This document shows positions 42,129 through 56,890 of a DNA stretch of 64,000 nucleotides, in pieces (the stretch's first letter is position 1; every line of letters starts with the position of its first letter). Source of the DNA: Paenacidovorax caeni (lineage in GTDB: Bacteria > Pseudomonadota > Gammaproteobacteria > Burkholderiales > Burkholderiaceae_C); assembly GCF_001298675.1 (NCBI RefSeq), contig NZ_CYIG01000005.1, positions 124,001 to 188,000 on the forward strand, written 5' to 3'. Below the pieces are notes generated by a model that made no database searches, was not told the DNA's origin, and saw only the letters and a program-made list of their open reading frames with translations. Position numbers and translations under genes: made by a program.

Positions 42129-45100
42129 GCGGGGTTCTCCGTGGGCGCATCGATCCAGTGCGTGCGCAGCTGCTGCAGCTGCGCCAGCGCCTGGTCGAAG
42201 TCAAAGGTGTCGATGGCCTCCTGCAGGCGCTCGGTGGCGTCGGCGGGCAATAGCTGCACCAGCACGTCCAGCGGCGGCTGGGCCAGCTCGGACTGCGCCA
42301 AGGCCTGCTGCAGCGCGTGCGCGGCGTCCCGGGCCTGCTGGCGCTGGTCGGCGGTCAGCGGCGCGTGCTGGCCCACGCCAGGGGCGGGTGCTGCGGCGGC
42401 CTCGGCCTCGTGGGCCAGGGCCTGCTGCACGGCCTGCAACGCGGCGGGCAGGGCAGCCACCAGCGGCTGCAGCGCCGTGCGGTCCAGGCTGTGGGCCGCT
42501 TCCTCAATGCGCTGCGCCAGCGTTTGCAGCGGGCCAAGCGCCAGGTTGCCTGCCGCACCACGCAGGCGGTGGGCCAGCGCACGGGCAGCGTCCATATCGG
42601 GCTGCGCCACCATGGCCTGCAAGGTGGCGGGGGTGGCAGCGTGGTCGGCCAGCAGGCGCGCCACGGCGTCGCGCAACAAGGCGCGCTGGCCCCACAGGCG
42701 GGTGCCGCGTTCCCAGTCCACGGCGGGCACGGCAGCCTGGGGGGCGGGGGGCATGTCGGGGCCGCGCGACAGGGTCTGCAGGCTGCTCCAGCCCGACGAG
42801 GAGGCATCGGGCTGCAGGTGCAGCACGCGGGCGATTTCGCGGAACAGGCGGGCGGGCTCCAGCGGCTTGCTCGCAAAGCCATCCATGCCCGCAGCGCGTG
42901 CGTTGCGCCGGTCCTGCTCCAGCACGCTGGCGGACAAGGCGATTACCGGCACTGGCTCACGCCGTTGCACCTGCTCGAACGCGCGGATGCGGCGCGTGGC
43001 CTCCAGGCCGTCCATGCCGGGCATCTGCAGGTCCATCAGCACCACGTCGAAGCGCCCGGCCTCGTAGGCGGCGACCGCGCTTTCGCCGTCCCGCGCCACG
43101 GTGACTTGGTGGCGCCCCCGGTCCAGATGGATCTGCAGCAGCTCGATGTTGGCCGGCACATCGTCCACCACCAGCATGCGCAGCGGCGGCAGCTGCACGG
43201 CCTGGCTCACGCAGGCCACGGCCGCCGTGGCCTGCCCCACGGGCAGCGGCACGCACACGGTGAACGTGGTGCCCACGCCCAACGTGCTGCGCACGCTGAT
43301 GCTGCCGCCCATCCGCTCCACCAGCTGGCGCGAGATGGTGGTGCCCAGGCCGGTGCCGCCGAACTGCCGCGTGGTGGACGCATCGGCCTGTGCAAAGGGG
43401 TCGAAGATGCGCTCCAGGTGCTGCGCGGCGATGCCGATGCCGGTGTCCTCCACCTCGATCACCAGCGTGCCGTCGTGGTAGTCCAGCCGCAGCAGCACAT
43501 GGCCGCGCTCGGTGAACTTGAGCGCGTTGCCCAGCAGGTTCAGCAGCACCTGCTGCAGGCGCAGTGCGTCGCCCCGCAGGTAGGGCGGGACCCGTTCAGC
43601 CATCACGCACTGCAGCGCAAGCCCCTTCTTGCCCGCATGGATGCGCAGCGTGGCGAGGATCTGGTCGCACACCTCCTGCAGCGAGAAGTCGGCAATCTCC
43701 ATCTCGACCGCGCCTTTCTCCAGCTTGGCCGTATCCAGGATGTCGTTGAGCAGGCGCAGCATGGAGCGGGCCGCTTGCTGCACGGTGCCCAGGTGGCGAC
43801 GCTGCTCGGCGTCCAAGGGGGTGTCGAGCAGCGCCTCAGTGAAGCCGATGATGGCGTTCATGGGCGTGCGGATTTCGTGGCTCATGTTGGCCAGGAAGGT
43901 GCTGCGCGCGGCGGCAGCGGCTTCCGCGCGCTCCTTGGCCTCGCGCAGTTCCTGCTCCATGGCGAGGCGCTCGGTGAGGTCGGTGACGAATTTCATGACC
44001 TTGAAGGGCCGGCCGTCCACGTCGAAGATGGGGTTGTAGGAGCCGTACATCCAGATGCGCCGCCCGCCCTTGCCCAGGCGCAGGTGCTCGCCCGCGTCGC
44101 ACTCGCCGCGCGCCAGCTTGGCCCACAGCGCGGCGTAGGCGGGGCTTTCCGCAATCGGCGCCGGGCACAACTGGCGGTGGTGGAGCTGGCGCAGCTCCTC
44201 CAGCGTATAGCCCATGAGATCGAGGTAATTGGCATTGGCCGTGAGCACCTGGCCCGTCAGGTCGAACTCCACCACGGCCATGGCCCGGTGCAGGGCGGCG
44301 GAGGTGCCCGCGAACTCGGCGTTGCGCGCCTTGCTCTCGGTGATGTCCAGGATCACGCCATCGATCCAGCGCGCGCCGGCGCCGCTCTCATCGCCGGGCA
44401 CGCCGCTCTCATCGCCGGGCACGCCGCTCTCATCGCCGGGCACGCCGCGCCCGTATTCGGCCAGCCAGCGCGTGCGGCCGTCGCGCGTGCGGATGCGGTA
44501 TTCGACGCGGTAGGCGCGCTGCTGCGCCAGCGCCTGCGCGACCTCGGGGGCGATGCGCTGCGCATCCTCTGCGTGCGTGATGTGGCCGAAATGCACGCGC
44601 CCCTGCAGGAAGTCCTCGGCGCTCCAGCCGGTGAGGGGCAGCACGGCGTCGCTGATGAACTCCATGGGCCAGTCGCCCTCGTTGCGGCAGCGGAAGGCCA
44701 CGCCGGGGATGTTGCCCACCAGGGTGCGCAGCTGCTCCTCGCGGCGGCGCAGCGCGCTTTCCATGGCGCGGCGCGCGCTGATGTCGGTGATGAAGCCCAC
44801 GAACAGCGCCTCGCCAGGCAGCGCCACGCGGCCCACGGCCAGGCGGATGGGCAGCACGCTGCCGTCCTTGCGCAGGGCCTCGACCTCGCGCCCCCGGCCG
44901 ATGATGCTGGAGCGCCCCGTGGTCAGGTGCGTGGACAGGTAGCCGTCGTGCGCCGACTGGTGCGGCTCGGGCATGAGCATGCTGACATTGCGCCCGATCA
45001 CCTCCTCGGCGCGCCAGCCCAGCAGGTGCTCGGCCGCGCCGTTGAACGACTGCACGATGCCGCGGCCGTTGATGGTGATGATGCCGTCCACCGCCGTGTC

Positions 45101-46000: not shown

Positions 46001-47563
46001 TCAATGCGCCAGCACCTGGCCCCACTCCTGCTCGTAGGTGTGCACCAGAACCTGGTTGGACAGGCGGTTGACCTCGGCCGGCACGCGCGCCATGTCGCGC
46101 GGGAAGTCGCGCAGCAGCGCCAGCGTGGGCAGGTCCAGAAAGCGCAGCCCCGCGGGCAGCTCCGTGGGCATGCGCCAGGGCCGGCGGCTGGCCAGCACGT
46201 AGCCCCACTCGCCGAAGCTGGGCACATGCGCGTGGTAGGGCGTGGCGCGCAGGCCCACCGATTCGATGGTGGCCACCACCGTCCAGAAGCTGCGGCGCGC
46301 CACCAGCGGCGAGGTGGTCTGCACCACGGCGTAGCCGCTGGCCGACAGACGTTGGTCGAGCAGGGCGTAGAAGCTGTTGGTATAGAGCTTGCCGATGGCG
46401 AAGTTGGTAGGGTCGGGGAAGTCGACCACGATCACATCGAAGGTCTCCTGCGCAGGCAGCGCTTGCAGCCACTGGAATGCATCCTCGTTCACGATATGTA
46501 CCTTGGGGCTCCACAGGGCGTCGGCGTTCAGGCGGCGTAGCGCCGGGTCGTCGCGGAACAGGCGCGTCATGGCCGGATCCAGCTCCACCAGCGTCACCGA
46601 CTCGACCGAGGGGTACTTCAGGATCTCGCGCACCGCCATGCCGTCGCCGCCGCCCAGCACCGCCACCTTGCGCGGCGCACCGTGCGCCGCCATGGCCGGG
46701 TGCACCAGGGCCTCGTGGTAGCGGTACTCGTCGCGCTCGGCGAACTGCAGGTTGCCGTTGAGGAACAGGCGGTGGCCCGCGCGCCCCTGCGTGACCACGA
46801 TGCGCTGGTACGGCGAGGCTGCCGCGACCACGATGCGATCCTGGTAGAAGCGGTCCTCGGCCAGGCTGGTGATGCGGTCCGCGCCGACCAGGCCAGCCCC
46901 CAGCAGTGCTAGCACCCCTGCGCAGGCTGCCGTATACGCGGCACGCCGGTGCAGCTCATGGCGGAACAGCCACAGCGCCCACACGGCCACGGCCGCGTTC
47001 ATCAGGCCAAACACCAGCCCGGTGCGGATCAGCCCCAGGTGCGGCACCAGCACCAGCGGAAAGGCCAGCGACACGGCCAGCGCGCCCAGGTAGTCAAAGG
47101 TCAGCACCTGCGACACCAGATCCTTCAGCGCCACGTTGCGCTTCAAGATACGCATGACCAGCGGAATCTCCAGCCCCACCAGCGTGCCCACCAGCAGCAC
47201 CATGCCGTACAGCAGTGGGCGGAAGGCTCCCGGTACATAGGCGTTTGCTATGAAAAGCGTAGCTGGTAGCGCTCCACCAATCAGGGCGACCAGCAGTTCT
47301 ATGCGTAAAAAGTGGGCGGGCAGCTGGCGCTCGAAATAGCGCGACAGCCACGAGCCCACGCCCATGGCAAACAGATAGGTGCCGATGACGGTGGAGAACT
47401 GCAGCACCGAGTCGCCCAGCACATAGGACGCCAGGGCGCCCGCCGCCAGCTCGTACAGCAGCCCGCAGGCCGCCACCACGAAAACGCTGGCCAGCAGGGC
47501 GACGTCTATCGGGCGCGGCGCAGTCGCGTGAACCGGCGCTGTGGGCGAGATGGGGGAGTTCAT
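46001..47563 (-). CDS. Membrane-bound polyamine aminopropyltransferase (SpeE-like)
   Basis: The 520-residue protein has an N-terminal half with about seven membrane helices and a C-terminal spermidine-synthase domain with the decarboxylated-SAM site VLGGGDGMAVREILKYP and VDFPDPTNFAIGKLYTNSFY. It probably makes spermidine or a related polyamine at the membrane. The ATG at 47563 overlaps the res stop codon by four bases (ATGA). A loose copy of the palindromic repeat (47242-47300) encodes part of a membrane helix. Such proteins are often linked to DUF350, DUF4178 and SPFH genes, which lie here on the other side of the restriction cassette. Confidence 0.87.
   Translation of the reverse strand: MNSPISPTAPVHATAPRPIDVALLASVFVVAACGLLYELAAGALASYVLGDSVLQFSTVIGTYLFAMGVGSWLSRYFERQLPAHFLRIELLVALIGGALPATLFIANAYVPGAFRPLLYGMVLLVGTLVGLEIPLVMRILKRNVALKDLVSQVLTFDYLGALAVSLAFPLVLVPHLGLIRTGLVFGLMNAAVAVWALWLFRHELHRRAAYTAACAGVLALLGAGLVGADRITSLAEDRFYQDRIVVAAASPYQRIVVTQGRAGHRLFLNGNLQFAERDEYRYHEALVHPAMAAHGAPRKVAVLGGGDGMAVREILKYPSVESVTLVELDPAMTRLFRDDPALRRLNADALWSPKVHIVNEDAFQWLQALPAQETFDVIVVDFPDPTNFAIGKLYTNSFYALLDQRLSASGYAVVQTTSPLVARRSFWTVVATIESVGLRATPYHAHVPSFGEWGYVLASRRPWRMPTELPAGLRFLDLPTLALLRDFPRDMARVPAEVNRLSNQVLVHTYEQEWGQVLAH
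47242..47300 (+). repeat. Palindromic repeat, copy 13 (inside the SpeE-like gene)
   Basis: GTAGCTGGTAGCGCT fits the family core, but the second half is degraded. It is antisense to the gene and encodes GGALPATLFIAN within a membrane helix. Confidence 0.5.
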
Positions 47564-50256
47564 GCCAGGGCGTTGTCCAGCTGTTGCGCCAGTCCTTCGA
47601 AAGTCAGCCAGCCAAATACGGCCTTCCCGCCGCTGCTGCGTGCCCACAGCTCACCGACTTGGCGTTTTTCCAGTTCGTAAGGCTCATGCTGCAAAAGCCC
47701 CTTGAACTCCAGCAACGCCACGCGCCCATCTGCCAGTTCGGCCACAAAGTCTGCATAGAACCGCCCACGCGATGTGGGCAGGCCAAAGCCGCAGGGCGCC
47801 GTGTCGAGGTTGCGCACCCAGTGGCGCACTTTGGGGTGGCGGTCGATGAGCTGCGCACATTGAAACTCTTGCCCGCCATCCTTCAGATCGGCCAGCACCG
47901 GGAAGTAGTGCTTGCCAAACTGATAGCGCCCGCCGTAACGCGAGGCCACGGGCGCGGGATAGCGGCCCGGCTCGAACACATGCGGGTGCGCCCAATCGGG
48001 CTCGATCAGCCATGCACCGCCATCCCCCAGACCCAGCACCTGTTGCTGAAAGGCACGCCGCGTGGCCGCTTCGCGCAGGTCGCCCACATGCGCTTCGATG
48101 GCGCGCGCCAGCCTGAAGCGCGCCTGTGCCAGCACCACCAGCGGCACGCCGCAGCTGTGCAACTGGTGCTTCACCACCGCCGCCAGGAAGGCGCGGCGCT
48201 GGCTCTGCGTGAGCCCGGCCAGTTCGGGGGCCTTGAACAGAGACTGGTCCAGCCAGCCCACCAAGGTGTCGGCATCAATGCTGCTGCTTTCCCAGTCCAT
48301 GGCCATTTGGGCGCTGCCCGCAGAGCGCAGCGCCACACGGGCACCGTCCATGCCGATCTCGAAAATGTCTGATTCCTGCGCCACCTGAAAGCCGGGCAAC
48401 TGCACCGCCTGCGGCGTGAGCAAGTCCAGTTCCACGGCGTCTAGCACCGCCTCGCGCTCCAGCGGCCACAGTGGGGCTTGCGCACCAAGCCGATAGCCCA
48501 ACGTGGGCAGCGGCGCAAACGGCACGCTGCGCGATGCCGGCGCCGCCTGCGCCGCCACCAGCGCGTTGTGCTGCGCCACCTGCTCGCGCACCTGCTCTTG
48601 CTTCTTGGCGCCGCGCACCTGGGCCAGCAGCAGCGCTTCGGTGTCTTGGCTGATGTGGCCGGTGACCACCACCTGTGCGACGCCCGCCACCGCCCGCTGC
48701 TGCACGCCGGGTGCCGCCAGCAGTTCGGGGGTGGCAGCAATGGACTCAAAATTTGTAGCTATTGGCGCTTGCTGGACGGGCGTTAGAGCCTGATTTGGTT
48801 CTAAATCATTGCCCCACAGCGGCAGGCTGCTTTGCGAGGCGATCATGCTCGCCACATCCAGCGCTTCAAAGCCCATGTGCTCGATCAGTCGATCCGCCAG
48901 TGCGTGCGCCGCCTGCGAGAACTCCGCCGCGCACACATGGGCGTAGGCGCGGTTGAGCGCCTCGCGCCCCCGGCGCGCAGCGTAGGGCATGCGCAGCACG
49001 CGGCCCAGCAATTGCTCCACCGCCGTGGCGCTGCTCAGTTTTTGCAGGCTGCACAGCACATAGGCAAACGGGCAGTCCCAGCCCTCGCGCAGCGCCTGCA
49101 CGGTGATGACGTAGCGCACCGGGCAATCGCGCGCCGCCAGGTGGATGTCGTCCAGGCCACGCTCCTTGCCCGTGGCCACGACCACCTGATTGGCTGGCAA
49201 TTTCAGTTCATCAATCAAGTAGTCGCGCAGCTTCTCGGGCGGCATCTCGTCGCCCGTGTTCTGCGCCTGAAAGAGCACGATGGGGCGCACATAGCCCGCG
49301 CCTGCGGCCTCGTCCTTCAGTGCCTCGGCCTCCAGCTTGCGCCGGGTTTGCACCGCGCCGAATACGGCAGCAGGCCAGCCCTCGGGGTGCTCTGCCAGCA
49401 CGATGGGCAGCTTGATCATGTCCTCGGCGGCCAGTTCCTGCGCGCTCACGTGGTACAGCACATTGGTCTTGGTGGCAATCGGTGTGGCCGTCAGCTCCAG
49501 AATGAAGCTGGGGTTGAGCCGCTGCAGCGCGGTAAAGCTTTTATCCGTCTTGGTGGTGTGCGCCTCGTCCACGATGAGCAGGGGCTGGTGCAGCGCCAGC
49601 CAGTTCGCCAGGCTCCAGCGCGGCTGGCCCGCAAAGCCCGCCAGCACGCCAGTGGTGTCGCGCGCCACATCCTCGGGCGTCACCAGCGCATCGGGCAGGG
49701 CACGCAGGCGGCTCAGCGCACGCTCATCCTTGCCCCTGAAATGCGGCTCGAAACTTTCCGAAAAACTGTAGACGTTGCGCTGGCCCGCATCCTCAATGCG
49801 AAAGCTCTGGATCGACGCCACCACCACCACGGCGTTGCGCCCCCACTCAGGCGGCGCGATCTGGGCCACGTCTTCTAGCACGCACACGCGCAACCCCTCA
49901 CCGTAGGCATCGACCAGTGCGGCGCGGTAGGGATGGCCGGGCGTCTGCAGGGCCTTGAGCGTCTGCTGGCGAATGGCATCACTGGGCACCAACCAGGCGG
50001 CCACCGGCGCATCCACCGCGGCCCACTCGCGTGCCAGCAGCGGCACGGCATGCGCGGCCAGCACCGTCTTGCCACCGCCGGTGGGGATGCGCAGGCACAC
50101 GCAGGGCAAATCGTCGCCAAACGCTCCCGCTTGCCAAGGGCGCCCCGTCTGTTCTCTGAACGCGCTCGCCGGTCCCTTGACCCGCGCTGCGCGAGCGAAG
50201 GCCGCCAGAGTGTCGATCGCGGCTTGCTGGTAGGTCTTGAGGGAGATGGGGGTCAT
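47560..50256 (-). CDS. Type III restriction enzyme, Res subunit
   Basis: The 898-residue protein is a superfamily 2 translocase-nuclease. Walker A is LRIPTGGGKTVLAAHA, motif II is LLIVDEAHTTKTD, motif III LELTATPIAT, and motif VI-like sequence is AVEQLLGRVLRMPYA. Near the C-terminus RFYADFVAELADG and ALLEFKG give the D and ExK residues of a PD-(D/E)xK nuclease. It should cut DNA only with the Mod subunit. Its start overlaps the AlbA-like gene by four bases and its stop overlaps the SpeE-like start by four. An antisense palindromic repeat encodes residues about 485-503. Confidence 0.92.
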   Translation of the reverse strand: MTPISLKTYQQAAIDTLAAFARAARVKGPASAFREQTGRPWQAGAFGDDLPCVCLRIPTGGGKTVLAAHAVPLLAREWAAVDAPVAAWLVPSDAIRQQTLKALQTPGHPYRAALVDAYGEGLRVCVLEDVAQIAPPEWGRNAVVVVASIQSFRIEDAGQRNVYSFSESFEPHFRGKDERALSRLRALPDALVTPEDVARDTTGVLAGFAGQPRWSLANWLALHQPLLIVDEAHTTKTDKSFTALQRLNPSFILELTATPIATKTNVLYHVSAQELAAEDMIKLPIVLAEHPEGWPAAVFGAVQTRRKLEAEALKDEAAGAGYVRPIVLFQAQNTGDEMPPEKLRDYLIDELKLPANQVVVATGKERGLDDIHLAARDCPVRYVITVQALREGWDCPFAYVLCSLQKLSSATAVEQLLGRVLRMPYAARRGREALNRAYAHVCAAEFSQAAHALADRLIEHMGFEALDVASMIASQSSLPLWGNDLEPNQALTPVQQAPIATNFESIAATPELLAAPGVQQRAVAGVAQVVVTGHISQDTEALLLAQVRGAKKQEQVREQVAQHNALVAAQAAPASRSVPFAPLPTLGYRLGAQAPLWPLEREAVLDAVELDLLTPQAVQLPGFQVAQESDIFEIGMDGARVALRSAGSAQMAMDWESSSIDADTLVGWLDQSLFKAPELAGLTQSQRRAFLAAVVKHQLHSCGVPLVVLAQARFRLARAIEAHVGDLREAATRRAFQQQVLGLGDGGAWLIEPDWAHPHVFEPGRYPAPVASRYGGRYQFGKHYFPVLADLKDGGQEFQCAQLIDRHPKVRHWVRNLDTAPCGFGLPTSRGRFYADFVAELADGRVALLEFKGLLQHEPYELEKRQVGELWARSSGGKAVFGWLTFEGLAQQLDNALA
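48745..48800 (+). repeat. Palindromic repeat, copy 14 (inside res)
   Basis: TTGTAGCTATTGGCGCTTGC and GGGCGTTAGAGCCTGATTTG match the family. It is antisense to res and encodes NQALTPVQQAPIATNFES, in a linker between helicase and C-terminal regions. Confidence 0.75.
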
Positions 50257-52139
50257 GGAAGAGGGTTTTCCTGCACACTGCGGTACGCCTGTTGCGGCGA
50301 CTTGGGCTTGTCCGGTTGGGTCATGACGATGCGCTTTTGCGCCAGCAGTGGACGCAGGTAGTCCTGCCGGATGGTTTCGGGCTTGCGACTGAGCAGCAAG
50401 GCCAGCTCTTCGGCCCGCCATGCTCGCAGTCTGCAAAGCTCCACCACCAATTCGCGCACCGGCTCTGGTGGGTGGCGTCGCCCTATGCTGCCGATGCGAG
50501 CCGCCAGTTGCCCTGGAATTTCATCCAGCAGCACGTTCCGCTCCTCGTCCGACTTGCTGGATAGGCCCTCAGGCTTACTGGATAAGCCCTCAGCCATGCT
50601 GGATAAGGGGGGGGGCTTACTGGATAGTTCGTCCAACTTGCTGGACAAGGCTCCCAACAGTCTCTCGGTAGGCAAATACCACGTAGCCGAACCTCTGCCC
50701 TGTTGGCTGAACAGGCCCGCATCGCGCAAACGCCGTAAGGCACTGCTGGCAGTCAGTGTGTCCACCTTGTTCAAAGCGCGGTAGGTGGCGTTGTCGATGG
50801 CGTTGGCCTCTCTGGCCACGACCAGGGCCCGGGCCTCCTCGTCGCTGAGATGCAGCACCTTGAACTGCGCCAGCCAGCGAATGTCTTCCTCGCCGAGAAA
50901 GTGGTGAAAGAAGAACAGGGTGGTGAACTGATCCTGGCCCCGATCCGACTCGAACAGGGGCGGCACCAAGCCGGCTGTGTCCATCGCCTCGCGCATGGCG
51001 CGAATGCCGCTGCCCTTGGTTTCGGCAAAGCGGGTTTCGTGCAGTACGGCAGCAATGTGAGGGTTGCGCGGCATGGAGCCCGGCTCCCCCAGATGATCGG
51101 GCGACTTGAGCGAGAAACCCGGATTGCGGATTTCAAGCCGGTTGGCATAGCGAATCACCTGCACCGGCGCCTGCACACGGTAGCTGCGGTGCATCAGGGC
51201 ATTGACCAGCGCTTCACGCAGCGCGCGCAACGGAATCACAGGCTTGTCACTGCGCTGCAATTGGCCCTCCTCCAGCCCAAAGCCCTTGGGCAGATCGTCC
51301 AGCACGGCGGCCTGCGTGCGGCGCAGCAGCGTGAAAAGTGGTGCACGCAGCTCCACCGTGTCAAAGCGGCGGTCGGGGTGCGGCACCCATTCGCGCCCCG
51401 GAACCCGGATGTAATCCACCCGCGTCATCGGAAAGCAGCGCCGCAGAGCCAAGGATTTCCCAAACAGCAATAGGCCAGCCACGGTGGGCTTCCAGGCACC
51501 TGCCGCATCGCGGCGCACCGCGTTCAATGCCTGCAACAGCTCCAAGTCCGTCCATCTCAGCTCCTCGGCATCGGGATTGGCCTCCGCTCTGGCTTGGCGG
51601 TAGTCGGCAATGGCGTCGGCATCAATGTCGTCCAGCTCGGCGCCAAAAACCAGCCCCGTGTCAAAACTTTCGCGCTGGCGCGACTGGTACAGCATTTCCA
51701 GATCGTCCTCGGTGCAGCGCTGGTCGGTGCTGCCGATCCGGCGAAACGCGCCCTTGGGCAAGCCGGTGGCCTTGAAGTAAATCGGCTTGTCCTGAGGCGC
51801 TGCCTCGGGCACGAACACGACAACGACGGGTTCACCCGACAGCATTTCAGTGCGGATGTCCACCCGCAGCGGCATGTTGAACGTCGTGGCGCACTGACTG
51901 GCCAAGTCCGCGCTGAGCTTGTCCGGCTGCGGCACACCCTCCACGGCATAGCCGGGAAACAGCGCCTGTTCGTCCGGCGCCACTCCCAACAAGAGCCAGC
52001 CGCCGCCCAAGTGGGGCTCATTGGCAAAGGCGCAAATGGTTTCCAGCAGCGACTTACCGGCTTCCTGTGCGCGCTTGGCCTCAATGCGCTCGTTTTCATC
52101 GAGAAGGTTCAAGCTTTCCAGCAGTTCCTGCGCGTTCAT
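50253..52139 (-). CDS. AlbA_2/Schlafen-type ATP-binding protein
   Basis: The 628-residue protein begins with an AlbA_2 domain (ERIEAKRAQEAGKSLLETI, CAFANEPHLGGGWLLLGV), followed by a HATPase_c_4-like domain (IPLRALREALVNALMHRSY, ETKGSGIRAMREAMDTAG) and C-terminal winged-helix segments. Between them is a run of heptad-like LSSKxDE/LSSKPEG units (residues about 490-525). Such proteins are often seen with restriction systems and phage defence, usually as regulators. It starts four bases after mod and overlaps res by four, so it is embedded in the R-M operon. Confidence 0.85.
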   Translation of the reverse strand: MNAQELLESLNLLDENERIEAKRAQEAGKSLLETICAFANEPHLGGGWLLLGVAPDEQALFPGYAVEGVPQPDKLSADLASQCATTFNMPLRVDIRTEMLSGEPVVVVFVPEAAPQDKPIYFKATGLPKGAFRRIGSTDQRCTEDDLEMLYQSRQRESFDTGLVFGAELDDIDADAIADYRQARAEANPDAEELRWTDLELLQALNAVRRDAAGAWKPTVAGLLLFGKSLALRRCFPMTRVDYIRVPGREWVPHPDRRFDTVELRAPLFTLLRRTQAAVLDDLPKGFGLEEGQLQRSDKPVIPLRALREALVNALMHRSYRVQAPVQVIRYANRLEIRNPGFSLKSPDHLGEPGSMPRNPHIAAVLHETRFAETKGSGIRAMREAMDTAGLVPPLFESDRGQDQFTTLFFFHHFLGEEDIRWLAQFKVLHLSDEEARALVVAREANAIDNATYRALNKVDTLTASSALRRLRDAGLFSQQGRGSATWYLPTERLLGALSSKLDELSSKPPPLSSMAEGLSSKPEGLSSKSDEERNVLLDEIPGQLAARIGSIGRRHPPEPVRELVVELCRLRAWRAEELALLLSRKPETIRQDYLRPLLAQKRIVMTQPDKPKSPQQAYRSVQENPLP

Positions 52140-52143
52140 CCCT

Positions 52144-53784
52144 TCACCTCGCCTTCACGTCATACGGAATGTGCTTGAACGTCACCCGTGCGCGGGCCAG
52201 GGTTTCGGGGCCCAGGCGGTTGGCCTCGCCATAGACCACCAGCGGCGCCTCGGGGTGGGGCGTGGTGGCGTGCAGCGCCAGCAGCGCATCGAGCACCGCG
52301 CGCGTGAGCACGTTGCCGCTGGCGGGGCGCTTGTCGCCCAAAATACCGTTGAACAGCAGGTAGTAGGCTGTGCGGCTGCGCAGCACCGGTGCATCCGAAA
52401 TTTCAAGCGAAATTGGCACTTCAGCCTTATCTGACAAGCGCGAGCAGCTCTCAAAAACAGAGTGCGTACCCAGCCACGGCGTGCCTGCACGACCCAAGGC
52501 GGGGTCGAAAGCGGTGCCGGTTTCTTGCTGCCAGACAAAAGCCGCCAGCGTGGCAAAACGCACATCGGGGTGAATGCAGCCGTGGGCATCAAAAATCGGT
52601 GCGCCCAGCCGCGCAAAACGAAAACCGCCGCCGCCCTGCCAGTTCACCGCGCTGCTGATGCCGCCTTGCTCGCCCGCGATCACCTTCTCCAGCCGGGGCA
52701 GGCAGTGCGTGGCGGCGTGCTCGCCCATTTCGATGCCGATCCAGCGGCGGCCCATCTTGTGCGCCACGGCGGCCGTGGTGCCGGAGCCGAGGAAGCTGTC
52801 GAGAACCAGGTCGCCGGGGTTGGATGCGATATGGAGGATGCGTTGGAGCAATGCTTCGGGTTTAGGTGTTGAAAACGGTGTTTCACCTGGGAAAAGCGCT
52901 ACCAATTCCGCCTTTGCTTTGCCGTTCGTCCCTACTTCCTGATGTAGCCACAGGGTCGACGGGACTAGGCCTTCTTGCACTTCCGACAGGAATTTTTTGA
53001 CCCGTGGCGCATTGTTTCCACTTTCGCCAAACCATATCCGGCCATCTCGCACCATCTCCAGAAATCGTGGCTCGGTGTAGAGCCAACAACGCCCGGGTGG
53101 TGGGTCGATCTTTCTTCCTGATGGAGTCGTGATTGTGAAAAACTGAGCCTCACGTCGCCCCTTCTCGGCCTTAGCATGTGCGGGCAGAGAGGCCCAATTC
53201 CCACGGGGGTCGCTATCTGGATTGGTGAATCGCTCTAGCTGCTCTTCTGAGGATGGAAGCATGTTTCTGACTTCCTTCCAGCCATCCCGGTTTTTGGCCA
53301 TCACAAGCAGGTGGTCATGCACGGCGGAAATGTCGGTTCTGTTTTCGCGCGTATGTGTCTTTTGCCAAAACACATTCGCCACAAAATTTCGCCGCCCAAA
53401 AACCTCATCCATCAACACCTTGAGGTAATGCCCCTCGTTGTCGTCGATGGTCACCCAGATCGATCCGTCCTCGGCGAGCAGCTCGCGCAGCAGTTGCAGG
53501 CGCGGCAGCATCATCGACAGCCACTGCGAATGCTCCAGGTTGTCGTCGTAATGCTCAAAGGCGCTTTGGGTGTTGTACGGTGGGTCGATAAAGATGCATT
53601 TCACCTGGCCCCGGTAAAACGGCAGCAGTGCCTTGAGGGCTTCGAGGTTGTCGCCCTGGATCAGCAGGTTGTCATGGGCTTGGTGCTGGTTCCCGTGGGT
53701 TGAAACGGTGTCCAGCAGCCGGTAGGGCACTTGGGCGGCGGTGGAGAAGGCAGTGGCGCGGTTAAGCCAGTCAAGGGTCGGCAT
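52144..53784 (-). CDS. Type III site-specific DNA methyltransferase, Mod subunit
   Basis: The 546-residue enzyme has the catalytic motif FIDPPYNTQSAFEHYDDN near residue 67 and, after the target-recognition region, the SAM motif LDSFLGSGTTAAVAHKMGRR near residue 335. This motif order (IV before I) is that of beta-class adenine methyltransferases such as type III Mod. The segment at about 52850-53450, the target-recognition domain, is visibly richer in A+T than its surroundings, as expected of a transferred recognition domain. It is first in the mod-AlbA-res operon. Confidence 0.93.
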   Translation of the reverse strand: MPTLDWLNRATAFSTAAQVPYRLLDTVSTHGNQHQAHDNLLIQGDNLEALKALLPFYRGQVKCIFIDPPYNTQSAFEHYDDNLEHSQWLSMMLPRLQLLRELLAEDGSIWVTIDDNEGHYLKVLMDEVFGRRNFVANVFWQKTHTRENRTDISAVHDHLLVMAKNRDGWKEVRNMLPSSEEQLERFTNPDSDPRGNWASLPAHAKAEKGRREAQFFTITTPSGRKIDPPPGRCWLYTEPRFLEMVRDGRIWFGESGNNAPRVKKFLSEVQEGLVPSTLWLHQEVGTNGKAKAELVALFPGETPFSTPKPEALLQRILHIASNPGDLVLDSFLGSGTTAAVAHKMGRRWIGIEMGEHAATHCLPRLEKVIAGEQGGISSAVNWQGGGGFRFARLGAPIFDAHGCIHPDVRFATLAAFVWQQETGTAFDPALGRAGTPWLGTHSVFESCSRLSDKAEVPISLEISDAPVLRSRTAYYLLFNGILGDKRPASGNVLTRAVLDALLALHATTPHPEAPLVVYGEANRLGPETLARARVTFKHIPYDVKAR

Positions 53785-53859
53785 GTTGGATGTGGAGGTG
53801 CCCGGTGTGCGGGCTGGAGGGCGAGTGCGCTATTGTGCGGGCGAGCTACCGCCACCGCG

Positions 53860-54078
53860 TCAGTGGATGGCGGCCGCCACGATGATGCTGATGCCCAGGC
53901 ACATGGCTGCCACCACCAGGGCCAGGGCCTGGTTTTGCTTTTCGACGATCTCGCGCCACAGGTCGTAGGGCGTGATCTTGTCCACGATGATGAAGCACAC
54001 CCAAAACACCACCACGCCGATGACGGCGTACAGGATGGAGCCGAGGAAGGCCGTGGGTTGGAGCCATTCGAGTTTCAT
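53860..54078 (-). CDS. DUF350 family membrane protein (YjfL-like)
   Basis: The 72-residue protein has two predicted membrane helices (LGSILYAVIGVVVFWVCFII and ALALVVAAMCLGISIIVAAA) joined by a polar loop with DKITPYDLWREI. This is the DUF350/YjfL type, often linked to DUF4178, SPFH and aminopropyltransferase genes. It starts 27 bases after the DUF4178 gene and lies just before the mod promoter region. Confidence 0.88.
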   Translation of the reverse strand: MKLEWLQPTAFLGSILYAVIGVVVFWVCFIIVDKITPYDLWREIVEKQNQALALVVAAMCLGISIIVAAAIH

Positions 54079-54105
54079 GGTGTTGTCCTTTCGTCAGTGC
54101 ACGCT

Positions 54106-55608
54106 TTACTTGTGGCCGCCGCCACTGGAGTAACCGCCCCAGGAGCCGCCGGAGTTGCGCGAATAGCCGCTGCCGCCCGAGGAGCCCCCCGAGCAGTCGC
54201 TCAGGATGATGAGCAAGATGATGATGACCACCGCAATCAGGATCACGGTGCCGCAGCCCGCGCCCTTGGAGGCGACGAAGGGCCCGGGGTCGCTGCCGCG
54301 CTGCAGCAGGTCTGCCTTGTCTTTCAGGCCGAAGGCCTGGGCCACGGTGTCGGCCTGCAGGCGGTCGCCGCTGGACCAGGTGACCTCGTTGGCGGTTTGC
54401 TCCATCGACAGCAGGCCTTTGCTGTTGGCGAAGTCGCGGTTGGCGGTTTTCTGGCCGCGCGCCACGGGCCAGTAGAACTCGCCCAGCACGTAGGTGGTTT
54501 CAGCGTCGTAGCTGTACTGCAGGGCGTAGGTGCTGCCCAGGTAGGTGGCGCTGCGCCCGTCGCTCGACAGCCGGGGCGCGCCGGTGGCAGGGCGCACCAG
54601 GCTCCAGCCGTCTTCGGCGTCCACCAGAAAGGCGAAGCCGCGCTTTTGGTTGTACAGCAGGTACTCGTTCCAGCCGAACAGTTCGTCGTCGCCGGGCTCG
54701 CGCCCCATGCGGTGCTGAAACCCCACTACTTGCCAGTGCACGCCCTGCAACTGGGCCTTGCTGCCCAGGGCAATCAGCGGCTGCACGGGCTCGTCCTGCT
54801 CGGCGGCGCGCAGCTCGCCGCCCACGCCGCTGTCCAGGTTGATGAGGCTGGCGCAGGACGGGCACGTCAGGCTCTTGGTGGTGGCCAGTTGTACCTGCAC
54901 CGGAGCGCCGCAGTGCGGGCAGCTGAACTGGCGGCCTTTTTCGTCCTTGACCGAGGCGTCCTTCAGCCCCTGCAGCTTCAGGTCGTCCAGCAGCACGGCG
55001 CGCCCGCGTTCGACCTGCGGCGGCTGGCGGCTGTAGTCGATGGAGAGCACATCGCCCTCGCTGCTGCGCAGCTCCACCATGCCAAAGGGCTCGCCCAGGG
55101 GCGGCAGCTTGGGCAGCTCGCCCTGGGCCGCGATCAGGCAGGCCTGGCCGCTGAAGGCCACGCTGTAGGGCTTCCCGTTGATGGCGGTGGTGGTGCCTAC
55201 GCGAAAGCGGCGGGCCTCGGGCAGTTCGCGCCCCGGGTCGATGGCGCGGGTGAAGACGTAGGCGCCGTTGTCTTCGCTCAGCGTGGCCAGGGTGCCGTCG
55301 TCAAGGAAGGCAGCCCACTCGGTCCACACCCCGGCGTCGCCCTTGAACTGCAGGCGGCCAACCAGGGTGAAGGGCAGCTCCTTGCCGTCCAGCGGCACGC
55401 GCCCGGTGGCCATGAGCTGCAGCGGGCTGTGGTCGTCGAACAGCTCGGCCATCTTGCCCAGGCGCTGCAGCACGTCGCCGCTGCGCACCACGGTGCTCTG
55501 GCAGTAGGCACAGACGGCGTGCGTGGACTGGGCGCTGCGGAATTCAACCGGCGCGCCGCAGCCGGGGCAGGGCGCCTGGTAGGTGCGCTGGGTGGGGGAG
55601 GTGGCCAT
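54106..55608 (-). CDS. DUF4178 zinc-ribbon membrane protein
   Basis: The 500-residue protein has an N-terminal zinc ribbon (CPGCGAPVEF, CAYCQSTVV), a DUF4178 domain, a second zinc ribbon (CPHCGAPVQV, CPSCASLIN near residue 230), and a second DUF4178-like region. Near the C-terminus is a membrane helix (GTVILIAVVIIILLIILSD) followed by a Gly/Ser-rich tail (SGGSGYSRNSGGSWGGYSSG). Its function is not known; the neighbourhood suggests membrane stress. Confidence 0.85.
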   Translation of the reverse strand: MATSPTQRTYQAPCPGCGAPVEFRSAQSTHAVCAYCQSTVVRSGDVLQRLGKMAELFDDHSPLQLMATGRVPLDGKELPFTLVGRLQFKGDAGVWTEWAAFLDDGTLATLSEDNGAYVFTRAIDPGRELPEARRFRVGTTTAINGKPYSVAFSGQACLIAAQGELPKLPPLGEPFGMVELRSSEGDVLSIDYSRQPPQVERGRAVLLDDLKLQGLKDASVKDEKGRQFSCPHCGAPVQVQLATTKSLTCPSCASLINLDSGVGGELRAAEQDEPVQPLIALGSKAQLQGVHWQVVGFQHRMGREPGDDELFGWNEYLLYNQKRGFAFLVDAEDGWSLVRPATGAPRLSSDGRSATYLGSTYALQYSYDAETTYVLGEFYWPVARGQKTANRDFANSKGLLSMEQTANEVTWSSGDRLQADTVAQAFGLKDKADLLQRGSDPGPFVASKGAGCGTVILIAVVIIILLIILSDCSGGSSGGSGYSRNSGGSWGGYSSGGGHK

Positions 55609-55645
55609 CGGGGCAGGGGCTGCATGCGCCGTTTCGCACGGAGTT

Positions 55646-55702
55646 CAGAGGCTTTTAGGCCTCTGGCGCTTATCCCTCAAGCGCAAGCAGCTATTGTTTT
55701 AG
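55646..55702 (-). repeat. Palindromic repeat, copy 15
   Basis: The reverse complement reads ACAATAGCTGCTTGCGCTTG and GGATAAGCGCCAGAGGCCTA. It lies between the SPFH gene and the DUF4178 gene, on their coding strand. Confidence 0.75.
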
Positions 55703-55713
55703 TAGCGATGGAT

Positions 55714-56760
55714 TCAGACCAACTTTTTCAGCAGTTCGGCTTTCTTGGCGTCAAACTCTTCCTGCGTCAGGATGCCTTTGGCCTTGAGGTCGGCGAGCTT
55801 CTCCAGCGTGGCCATGACTTCTTCGGGTTTGACACCCACGGGGGCCGCCGGAGCCGCCTGGGCCACCGGGGCCGCGCCACCGGCCAGGCCGGCCTGCAGG
55901 TTCTGCGCCAGCACCTGGCCCAGTGCCACGCCGGCGCCCAGGCCCATGGCATCGCCGGCAATGCCGCCACCGCCCTGGCCCACGCCCTCGGCCAGTTTGG
56001 GGATGGCCTGTGCTGTCTGGTACTGCATGAACTTGCCCATGTCGTTGCCGACCATGCCCATGCCGATCTTCTGGTCCAGGACCTTTTGCAGTTCCTCGGG
56101 CAGCGAGACGTTCTGCACCGTCATGCTTTCGAGCTGCAGGCCGATCTTGGCGAAGGCGGGTTGCAGTTCCTTGGCCAGGGCGTCGGCAAACATCACCTGG
56201 TTGGCCGCCAGGTCGAGGAAGGGCAGGCCGCTGCCCGCAATCGCGTTGCTGATGTTCTGCAGCACCAGGCCGCGCAGCTGGCCTTCCAGGTCGGCCGCGG
56301 GGTAGCTTTCGCGCGTGCCCGAAATCTCGGTGTGGAACAGCTTGGGGTCGGTCAGCCGATAGGCGTAGTTGCCGAAGGCGCGCAGGCGCACCGCGCCGAA
56401 GTCCTTGTCGCGGATGGTGATGGGCTGCGGCGTGCCCCACTTCTGGTCGATCTGCTGGCGCGTGCTGAAGAAGTACACGTCGCTCTTGAACGGCGACTGG
56501 AACAGCTTGTCCCAGTTCTTCAGATACGTGAGTACCGGCAGCGTCTGCGTGGTCAGCTTGTAGGTGCCGGGGCCGAACACGTCGGCCACCTGGCCTTCGT
56601 TGACGAACACCGCCATCTGCGACTCGCGCACCACCAGCGTGCCGCCGTTCTGGATTTCCATGCCCGCCATCGGGTAGCGCCAGGCCAGGGTGCCGTCGCC
56701 GTCCTCGGTCCACTGGAGGATGTCGATGAACTGTTTCTTGATGAAGTCCATGAGGGCCAT
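55714..56760 (-). CDS. SPFH-domain virion-core-like protein with SHOCT tail
   Basis: The 348-residue protein has an SPFH domain (residues about 20-260, from QWTEDGDGTLAWRYPM through VQNVSLPEELQKVLDQK), a Gly/Ala-rich segment, and a C-terminal SHOCT helix (LADLKAKGILTQEEFDAKKA). The family is annotated as virion-core-like SPFH and is thought to scaffold membranes. ATG 56760 is chosen over 56766 because GGAG lies seven bases before it. It is first of the SPFH-DUF4178-DUF350 cluster. Confidence 0.88.
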   Translation of the reverse strand: MALMDFIKKQFIDILQWTEDGDGTLAWRYPMAGMEIQNGGTLVVRESQMAVFVNEGQVADVFGPGTYKLTTQTLPVLTYLKNWDKLFQSPFKSDVYFFSTRQQIDQKWGTPQPITIRDKDFGAVRLRAFGNYAYRLTDPKLFHTEISGTRESYPAADLEGQLRGLVLQNISNAIAGSGLPFLDLAANQVMFADALAKELQPAFAKIGLQLESMTVQNVSLPEELQKVLDQKIGMGMVGNDMGKFMQYQTAQAIPKLAEGVGQGGGGIAGDAMGLGAGVALGQVLAQNLQAGLAGGAAPVAQAAPAAPVGVKPEEVMATLEKLADLKAKGILTQEEFDAKKAELLKKLV

Positions 56761-56890
56761 GCGCATGCTCCAAGGGATGAATAAAGGGATGGAACGAGGC
56801 CGCCATGATAGCCGCCGGACTGTCGCGCGCGGATCCTGCGGGCGGGCACGCTATGCACGGCTTAGCGAGGATCAATTGGCGCTTTTAAAT

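What the first reader, a model, noticed from the sequence alone, without database searches (positions are those of the whole stretch)
46001..56760. The R-M operon splits a membrane-stress locus and is translationally coupled to the aminopropyltransferase
SPFH, DUF4178, DUF350 and membrane SpeE-like genes are often neighbours in other bacteria (my recollection). Here they have the same strand and order but the mod-AlbA-res cassette lies between DUF350 and SpeE. The res stop codon and SpeE start share ATGA. The SpeE-like gene may now depend on the R-M transcript, linking polyamine synthesis to defence.
Basis: partly seen in the sequence, partly recalled or inferred. Interest (0 to 1): 0.6.

Follow-up and report, generated by a model that had tools for sequence, protein, structure and literature searches.

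The report
Restriction cassette inside a membrane-stress operon
A bacterial DNA-defence gene set sits inside a conserved membrane-gene operon, at a spot where relatives carry many different genes, and in every relative examined with the same arrangement its last gene overlaps the start of the next host gene, so that host gene may depend on it.

Summary
On the minus strand the order is SPFH, DUF4178, DUF350, mod, AlbA_2, res, membrane SpeE; the res stop and SpeE start share ATGA (47563-47560). The DUF350|SpeE junction is a recurrent cargo slot. Of 108 relatives holding DUF4178 and SpeE together, 43 carry over 300 bp there; neighbouring junctions do so in 1 of 60 and 0 of 59 loci. Cargo is mixed: type III R-M in 7, a type I R-M, a decayed R-M, TonB receptors, NUDIX, PIN, GGDEF and more. 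In the 20 loci where res directly precedes SpeE (one decayed), all have the four-base overlap, against 6 of 30 for other same-strand cargo. The last res codon is the rare GCA in 17 of 20, so the overlapping start codon is maintained. One recombination tract (346 identical bases) spans res and SpeE. The same res family also precedes lipB or lipA in 8 genomes. I read this as an R-M cassette living in a core operon, exchanged by homologous recombination, SpeE probably being started by ribosomes leaving res. Functional coupling is untested; a defence-polyamine link is not supported. Integrase-free hotspots are known; the fixed overlap with a core gene appears new.

The parts
55714..56766 (-). SPFH/Band 7 protein with SHOCT tail, first gene of the operon
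   Evidence: Pfam Band_7_1 1.5e-76
54106..55608 (-). DUF4178 protein; weak zinc-ribbon matches below cut-off; C-terminal hydrophobic segment
   Evidence: Pfam DUF4178 4.2e-28; hydropathy
53860..54078 (-). DUF350 short membrane protein, left border of the cargo slot
   Evidence: Pfam DUF350 2.5e-15
53830..53838 (-). GCACAATAG element in the DUF350-mod gap; CACAATAGCG also precedes mod in L043, L106 and off-site L100, and the mod remnant of L061: possible -10-like element carried by the cassette (weak evidence)
   Evidence: 3 matches in the window against 1.6 by chance, so not significant alone
52144..53784 (-). mod, type III N6/N4 DNA methyltransferase (DPPY at aa 67, FxGxG at aa 331)
   Evidence: Pfam 5.7e-48; PADLOC MTase_III 9.3e-181; motifs
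50253..52139 (-). middle gene, SLFN_AlbA_2 plus HATPase_c_4
   Evidence: Pfam 3.6e-14 and 6.2e-17; replaced by other AlbA_2 classes or DUF3800 in relatives
47560..50256 (-). res, type III restriction helicase-nuclease (GGGKT, DEAH, C-terminal EFK)
   Evidence: PADLOC REase_III 1.7e-194; Pfam ResIII; motifs. Searches used 47560-50253, that is without the first Met codon
47560..47563 (-). ATGA: res stop and SpeE start overlap
46001..47563 (-). membrane SpeE-like aminopropyltransferase, right border of the slot (six N-terminal hydrophobic segments, GGGDG, DxxDP)
   Evidence: Pfam Spermine_synth 1.1e-35; PDB relatives
47514..47859 (-). 346-nt perfectly identical stretch with G226 across the res/SpeE junction, part of a longer high-identity tract in the 3' part of res

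Best explanation
A complete type III-like R-M cassette (mod, AlbA_2, res) lies in a cargo slot between DUF350 and the start codon of SpeE in an older SPFH-DUF4178-DUF350-SpeE operon. Shown by comparison: the slot is filled repeatedly with unrelated genes; R-M presence there has changed many times and one copy is decayed; in all loci examined where res directly precedes SpeE, the res stop overlaps the SpeE start. Inferred: the cassette is exchanged by homologous recombination through the flanking genes rather than by an integrase, and SpeE is translated at least partly by ribosomes that finish res, on a transcript from the SPFH side and/or a promoter before mod. The likeliest consequence is polarity: SpeE output follows res translation. 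No dedicated defence-polyamine circuit is implied.
For: Slot: 43 of 108 genomes have over 300 bp between DUF350 and SpeE (60 measured, 48 inferred short), against 1 of 60 loci for DUF4178-DUF350 and 0 of 59 for SPFH-DUF4178. DUF4178, DUF350 and SpeE keep their order in the 60 loci fetched; SPFH precedes in 59 and lies outside the stretch taken in L036. Turnover: at least 10 changes on a SpeE tree (18 carriers, 26 non-carriers) and 8 on an SPFH+DUF4178 tree (17 and 26); remnants of mod and res around a DUF3800 gene in G141 while its congener G353 is intact. Overlap: 20 of 20 res-SpeE junctions; last codon GCA in 17 of 20 against 7.6% of Ala codons, and in 15 of 18 at this column against at most 8 at the other 39 invariant Ala columns; 7 of 20 have no other start from -30 to +80. 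Recombination: tract spanning the junction with G226, an outlier among 153 pairs. No terminator-like site in the short gaps on the minus strand.
Against: No expression data exist. Overlap does not prove coupling: PvuII C/R genes overlap but are translated independently (PMC2997769, abstract). Only 1 of 153 carrier pairs shows a tract across the junction, and identity dips to 86-90% inside that tract near 9.4-9.5 kb of L044. res distances follow the flanks moderately (Spearman 0.49-0.68, n=17), so part of the distribution is vertical. The trees are quick searches with many weakly supported forks, and rows were chosen with carriers over-represented, so the counts of changes are not rates. SpeE upstream sequences in carriers have no weaker Shine-Dalgarno pairing than in 11 empty slots (median -3.3 against -1.8), so direct initiation is possible. 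Cargo identity rests on profiles and my own gene caller.
Confidence: 0.7

Rival explanations
1. Ancient resident: one insertion in a common ancestor, inherited vertically and lost in many lines; the constant overlap is ancestry plus start-codon constraint, not exchange.
For: res distances correlate with SpeE (0.68) and DUF4178 (0.63) among 17 carriers; GCA-TGA shared by most carriers; decay seen in G141.
Against: Carriers and non-carriers are interleaved (at least 8-10 changes, though counts cannot tell gain from loss); off-site copies L098, L099 and L100 fall among slot copies in the res tree, at modest support; mod is uncorrelated with SpeE (0.11), though its recognition part may simply evolve fast; the middle gene differs in class between carriers; a recombination tract crosses the junction.
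Confidence: 0.2
2. Ordinary operon packing: a 4-bp overlap is the commonest spacing of bacterial operon genes (recalled), and SpeE is simply co-transcribed with whatever precedes it; no regulatory meaning.
For: Overlaps of 1 or 4 bp also occur with 6 of 30 other same-strand cargo genes, including hsdR of G020, and in 6 of 20 DUF350 rows.
Against: 20 of 20 for res is higher than for other upstream genes (Fisher 5e-9, ignoring relatedness), and the codon constraint is specific to this column.
Confidence: 0.35
3. Functional module: the R-M and the membrane-stress/polyamine genes act together in phage defence, with SpeE recruited by the R-M.
For: Constant res-SpeE overlap in 20 loci; DUF350, DUF4178 and a membrane SpeE belong to an envelope-stress operon in print.
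Against: 30 of 43 filled slots gave no defence-type match in what was profiled; relatives of res sit before lipB or lipA in 8 genomes; the R-M also lies apart from SpeE in G120, G136 and G213, and downstream of it in L117.
Confidence: 0.06

Closest known systems
[quoted passage not shown] 2017, PMC5635113; abstract and passages)
   Same: Turnover of unrelated genes between conserved genes, no mobility gene identified in the cargo profiled, recombination in a flanking gene (one case).
   Different: This slot lies inside one operon and ends at the start codon of the next gene; the paper's statistical hotspot test was not run here.
Defence hotspots of E. coli (PMC10121019; passages)
   Same: Core-gene-flanked site with R-M cargo; some sites there also show no detectable mobile element.
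   Different: Most filled slots here gave no defence-type match, and much of the cargo reads with the host operon.
PSP-linked operon with CesT/Tir-PspA, TM-SpeE, DUF350 and DUF4178 (PMC11237479; passages)
   Same: DUF4178, DUF350 and membrane-fused SpeE together.
   Different: SPFH here; no PspA match in this genome.
Type III R-M systems (PADLOC MTase_III, REase_III)
   Same: Mod and Res with expected motifs.
   Different: Extra, interchangeable gene between mod and res (AlbA_2 classes or DUF3800).
Overlapping R-M genes: EcoKI hsdM/hsdS (coupled; PMC3510504, search listing only) and PvuII C/R (independent; PMC2997769, abstract)
   Same: Stop-start overlap of adjacent genes.
   Different: There both genes belong to the R-M; here the downstream gene is a host core gene.

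Membership tests
Type III restriction-modification system | Mod of the N6/N4 methylase family with DPPY before FxGxG | tested here: met
   (motif order as a mark of this methylase class is recalled)
Type III restriction-modification system | Res with helicase motifs and C-terminal nuclease | tested here: met
   PADLOC REase_III 1.7e-194 over aa 4-881; GGGKT, DEAH, LLEFKG by pattern; nuclease fold not modelled
Type III restriction-modification system | Methylates and restricts DNA | not testable with these tools
   needs enzyme or phage assays
Integrase-free recombination hotspot | Same flanks with diverse unrelated cargo | tested here: met
   (on a first, cruder ORF set)
Integrase-free recombination hotspot | More transferred genes than 95% of simulated maxima | not tested
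   no whole-genome spot analysis was made
Integrase-free recombination hotspot | Recombination in flanking core genes | tested here: inconclusive
   clear tract in 1 of 153 carrier pairs
Integrase-free recombination hotspot | No integrase or transposase in cargo | tested here: inconclusive
   none among the cargo proteins profiled, but not every ORF was profiled
PSP-linked TM-SpeE/DUF350/DUF4178 operon | TM-fused SpeE, DUF350 and DUF4178 together | tested here: met
PSP-linked TM-SpeE/DUF350/DUF4178 operon | CesT/Tir-PspA dyad | tested here: not met
   PF04012: 0 matches in the genome, controls ring; CesT/Tir not searched
Translationally coupled gene pair | Overlapping stop and start, maintained | tested here: met
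Translationally coupled gene pair | Downstream translation depends on upstream translation | not testable with these tools
   needs reporter fusions

The most novel reading that the evidence does not exclude
Translational tethering: this R-M family settles directly before the start codon of core operon genes (SpeE; lipB or lipA), so that the downstream gene is started from the res stop codon. Breaking or silencing res would then lower a useful host gene, which makes loss of the R-M costly and keeps the cassette in place without an integrase.
Probability: 0.15. Interest if true: 0.8.

Novelty: new variant of a known kind. Interest (0 to 1): 0.5.

Why it matters
It gives a defined acceptor slot, with empty, filled and decayed versions among relatives, where the exchange of R-M cassettes in natural genomes can be followed base by base. 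It also raises a testable idea: that a defence cassette can be kept, or its silencing punished, because a core gene borrows its stop codon as a start. The slot is a place to look for uncharacterised cargo in Comamonas, Acidovorax and Giesbergeria.

Tried and rejected
Dedicated defence island: rejected; by my labels 13 of 43 filled slots hold something defence-like (7 type III R-M, one type I, one decayed R-M, one DUF3800, one AlbA_2, two PIN pairs, some named by similarity only), 30 gave no such match in what was profiled. Cargo vehicle: the res protein has no match above 60% identity in 72,556 plasmids or 50,697 phages; best plasmid match 40%. Consensus sigma-70 scan: 0 hits in 11.1 kb against 1.0 by chance; uninformative. 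GCACAATAG element: shared before mod by some cassettes, but the window count is within chance, and the decamer also lies just before SpeE in G136 (L056), so it is only a hint. My first gene calling by longest ORF gave false antisense genes (also used, and wasted profiles); replaced by codon-usage calling. In one search, three rows labelled DUF350 (L069, L074, L075) are occupied slots whose cargo the caller missed, and one of the four antisense rows (L117) is not a slot locus. Weak Shine-Dalgarno as proof of coupling: rejected, carriers are not weaker than empties. Paper searches for this arrangement (listings, with passages or abstracts of hits) gave none that I saw describing it; that library lacks most subscription journals.

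Full report
What is there. The intergenic distances are 105, 27, 75, 4, -4 and -4 bp. Mod and Res match PADLOC type III models over most of their length and keep DPPY, FxGxG, GGGKT, DEAH and a C-terminal EFK. SpeE has six hydrophobic N-terminal segments and an aminopropyltransferase domain with GGGDG and DxxDP.

The operon without R-M. In 200 genomes of the same family, a SpeE match was found in 125 and a DUF4178 match in 114; 115 of the 125 were entered (10 with only weak paralogues or fragments left out), and in 108 both genes lie on one contig and strand. In 62 of these the whole stretch between them is 232-494 bp, room for DUF350 and little else; I took out 14 of the 62. In all 60 loci I took out, DUF4178, DUF350 and SpeE keep their order; SPFH precedes them in 59, and in L036 it lies outside the stretch. 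A related operon with DUF4178, DUF350, a membrane SpeE and PspA is in print (PMC11237479, passages); this genome has no PspA match.

A cargo slot. Forty-three of the 108 genomes have more than 300 bp between DUF350 and SpeE, up to 16.4 kb (the 48 unfetched genomes are short). The adjoining junctions are almost never interrupted: DUF4178-DUF350 in 1 of 60 (L060), SPFH-DUF4178 in 0 of 59. Cargo is mostly unrelated between genomes (on a first and cruder ORF set) and mostly reads with the operon. It includes type III R-M (7 of 108, the window included), hsdM/DUF3800/hsdR (G020), a DUF3800 gene alone (G142), TonB receptors, an AlbA_2 gene (G088), NUDIX, PIN, GGDEF, PEP-CTERM, EamA, MFS, peptidases, a chemoreceptor and a 16-kb hydantoinase/MMPL block (some members named by similarity). 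By my labels 13 of the 43 are defence-like; PADLOC was run on 10 proteins only. In three slots the gene next to SpeE is antisense (L050, L051, L057), so SpeE need not be co-transcribed with its upstream neighbour everywhere.

The R-M at this slot. A res search of 399 genomes gave 17 full-length matches at 64% identity or more, the window included: nine at the SpeE slot (G000, G226, G353, G004, G023, G138, G196, G072, G095), five before lipB, three elsewhere. A scan of named genomes gave 20 loci. Of these, 13 have DUF350 and SpeE on either side, two (L110, L118) show res-SpeE with the contig cut upstream, in one (L117) the R-M lies just downstream of SpeE, two (L107, L120) end inside res, and two (L108, L124) show no SpeE beside the R-M. 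Hosts as titled include Comamonas granuli, Acidovorax defluvii (a record marked unverified/contaminated), A. soli, A. temperans, Giesbergeria and Ramlibacter. The middle gene differs: the window's AlbA_2 type, two other AlbA_2 classes, or DUF3800. Between DUF350 and mod there are 27 bp to 1.6 kb, with a UPF0149/SEC-C gene in some. The same-genus relative G120 has an empty slot (an ATG for SpeE 19 bp after DUF350) and its R-M elsewhere. G141 keeps the last 24 residues of mod and the C-terminus of res around a DUF3800 gene, with ATGA intact, while its congener G353 is complete.

Exchange. On quick trees of SpeE (18 carriers, 26 others) and SPFH+DUF4178 (17 and 26), R-M presence changes at least 10 and 8 times (carriers are over-represented, so this is no rate, and gain cannot be told from loss). 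In the res tree, off-site copies L098, L099 and L100 fall among slot copies, at modest support. Among 17 carriers, res distances follow SpeE at 0.68, DUF4178 at 0.63 and SPFH at 0.49, and mod follows SpeE at 0.11. Against G226, the window is 96.2% identical in the 3' part of res (with a dip to 86-90% near its end), then has 346 identical bases across the res/SpeE junction (47859-47514), 94.7% over the first 150 bases of SpeE, and 85% and 82% further in. This is best read as one transferred tract with the junction inside it. It is the only such case among 153 pairs. No match above 60% identity is on a listed plasmid or phage.

The overlap. In all 20 loci where res directly precedes SpeE (19 with res as far as held, one decayed) an in-frame ATG, GTG or TTG overlaps the res stop by four bases, against 6 of 30 other same-strand cargo genes and 6 of 20 DUF350 rows (Fisher 5e-9 and 3e-6, related sequences counted as independent). 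The last res codon is GCA in 17 of 20 and all 20 stops are TGA, while GCA makes up 7.6% of Ala codons in these genes (161 of 2,117). Among 40 invariant Ala columns in 18 res genes, the last one has 15 GCA and the next highest 8, a control that shares the same ancestry. Seven of the 20 have no other start codon from -30 to +80. So the overlapping codon is very likely the SpeE start and is maintained. Whether ribosomes must finish res to start SpeE is not shown: the PvuII C/R overlap proved independent (PMC2997769, abstract), whereas EcoKI hsdM/hsdS is coupled (PMC3510504, search listing only). Shine-Dalgarno pairing does not decide it.

A second slot. Relatives of res sit directly before lipB in L101-L105, L135 and L137 and before lipA in L133 (LplA-B_cat profiles for three, the rest by similarity; DUF493/ybeD next to mod by profile in L104, and by similarity 3.3 kb upstream of mod in L101; lipA named by eye). 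L101, L102 and L133 overlap by ATGA; the others are 6-28 bp apart. For this I examined 20 copies: the eight off-site ones at 64% or more and the 12 full-length relatives at 46-55%. The other 12 of these 20 gave no lipB or lipA beside res, and weaker relatives were not taken. The R-M family therefore enters at least two conserved operons, each time before a core gene, with the overlap fixed only at SpeE.

Mechanism and verdict. The best-supported reading is an R-M cassette in an apparently integrase-free slot inside a core operon, swapped by homologous recombination in the flanks, with SpeE started at the res stop and hence probably polar on res. Slot, turnover and maintained overlap are shown by comparison; the recombination route (one clear tract), the co-transcription and the coupling are inferred. 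A link between polyamines and defence is not supported. The boldest reading not excluded is that the overlap tethers the cassette to its host by making a core gene depend on it.

Noticed in passing
L101-L105, L133, L135, L137 (res 3' ends): Relatives of res lie directly before lipB or lipA (after ybeD/DUF493 where seen), with ATGA overlap in three of eight: a second conserved operon used by these cassettes.
   Followed up: partly
window 50253-52139 and L041, L045, L099, L101, L111: The gene between mod and res is interchangeable: several AlbA_2/HATPase classes or DUF3800. The AlbA_2 genes' only PADLOC hits, where there were any, are Argonaute-linked models.
   Followed up: partly
L096:1697-2494, L097:2677-3471, and before mod in L111, L112, L115, L123: A UPF0149/SEC-C gene (profiled in L096 and L097; similar end sequence seen by eye in the others) often lies between DUF350 and mod; L096 also has a PIN gene with a small partner.
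   Followed up: partly
L117:2941-10715: In one Giesbergeria MAG the R-M lies just downstream of SpeE instead of upstream.
   Followed up: no
window 44385-44447: Three exact 21-bp tandem units inside the MHYT/PAS hybrid histidine kinase gene (GVPGDES repeats).
   Followed up: no
L056 (G136), just before the SpeE start: CACAATAGCG, the decamer seen before mod in several cassettes, stands immediately upstream of SpeE here.
   Followed up: no
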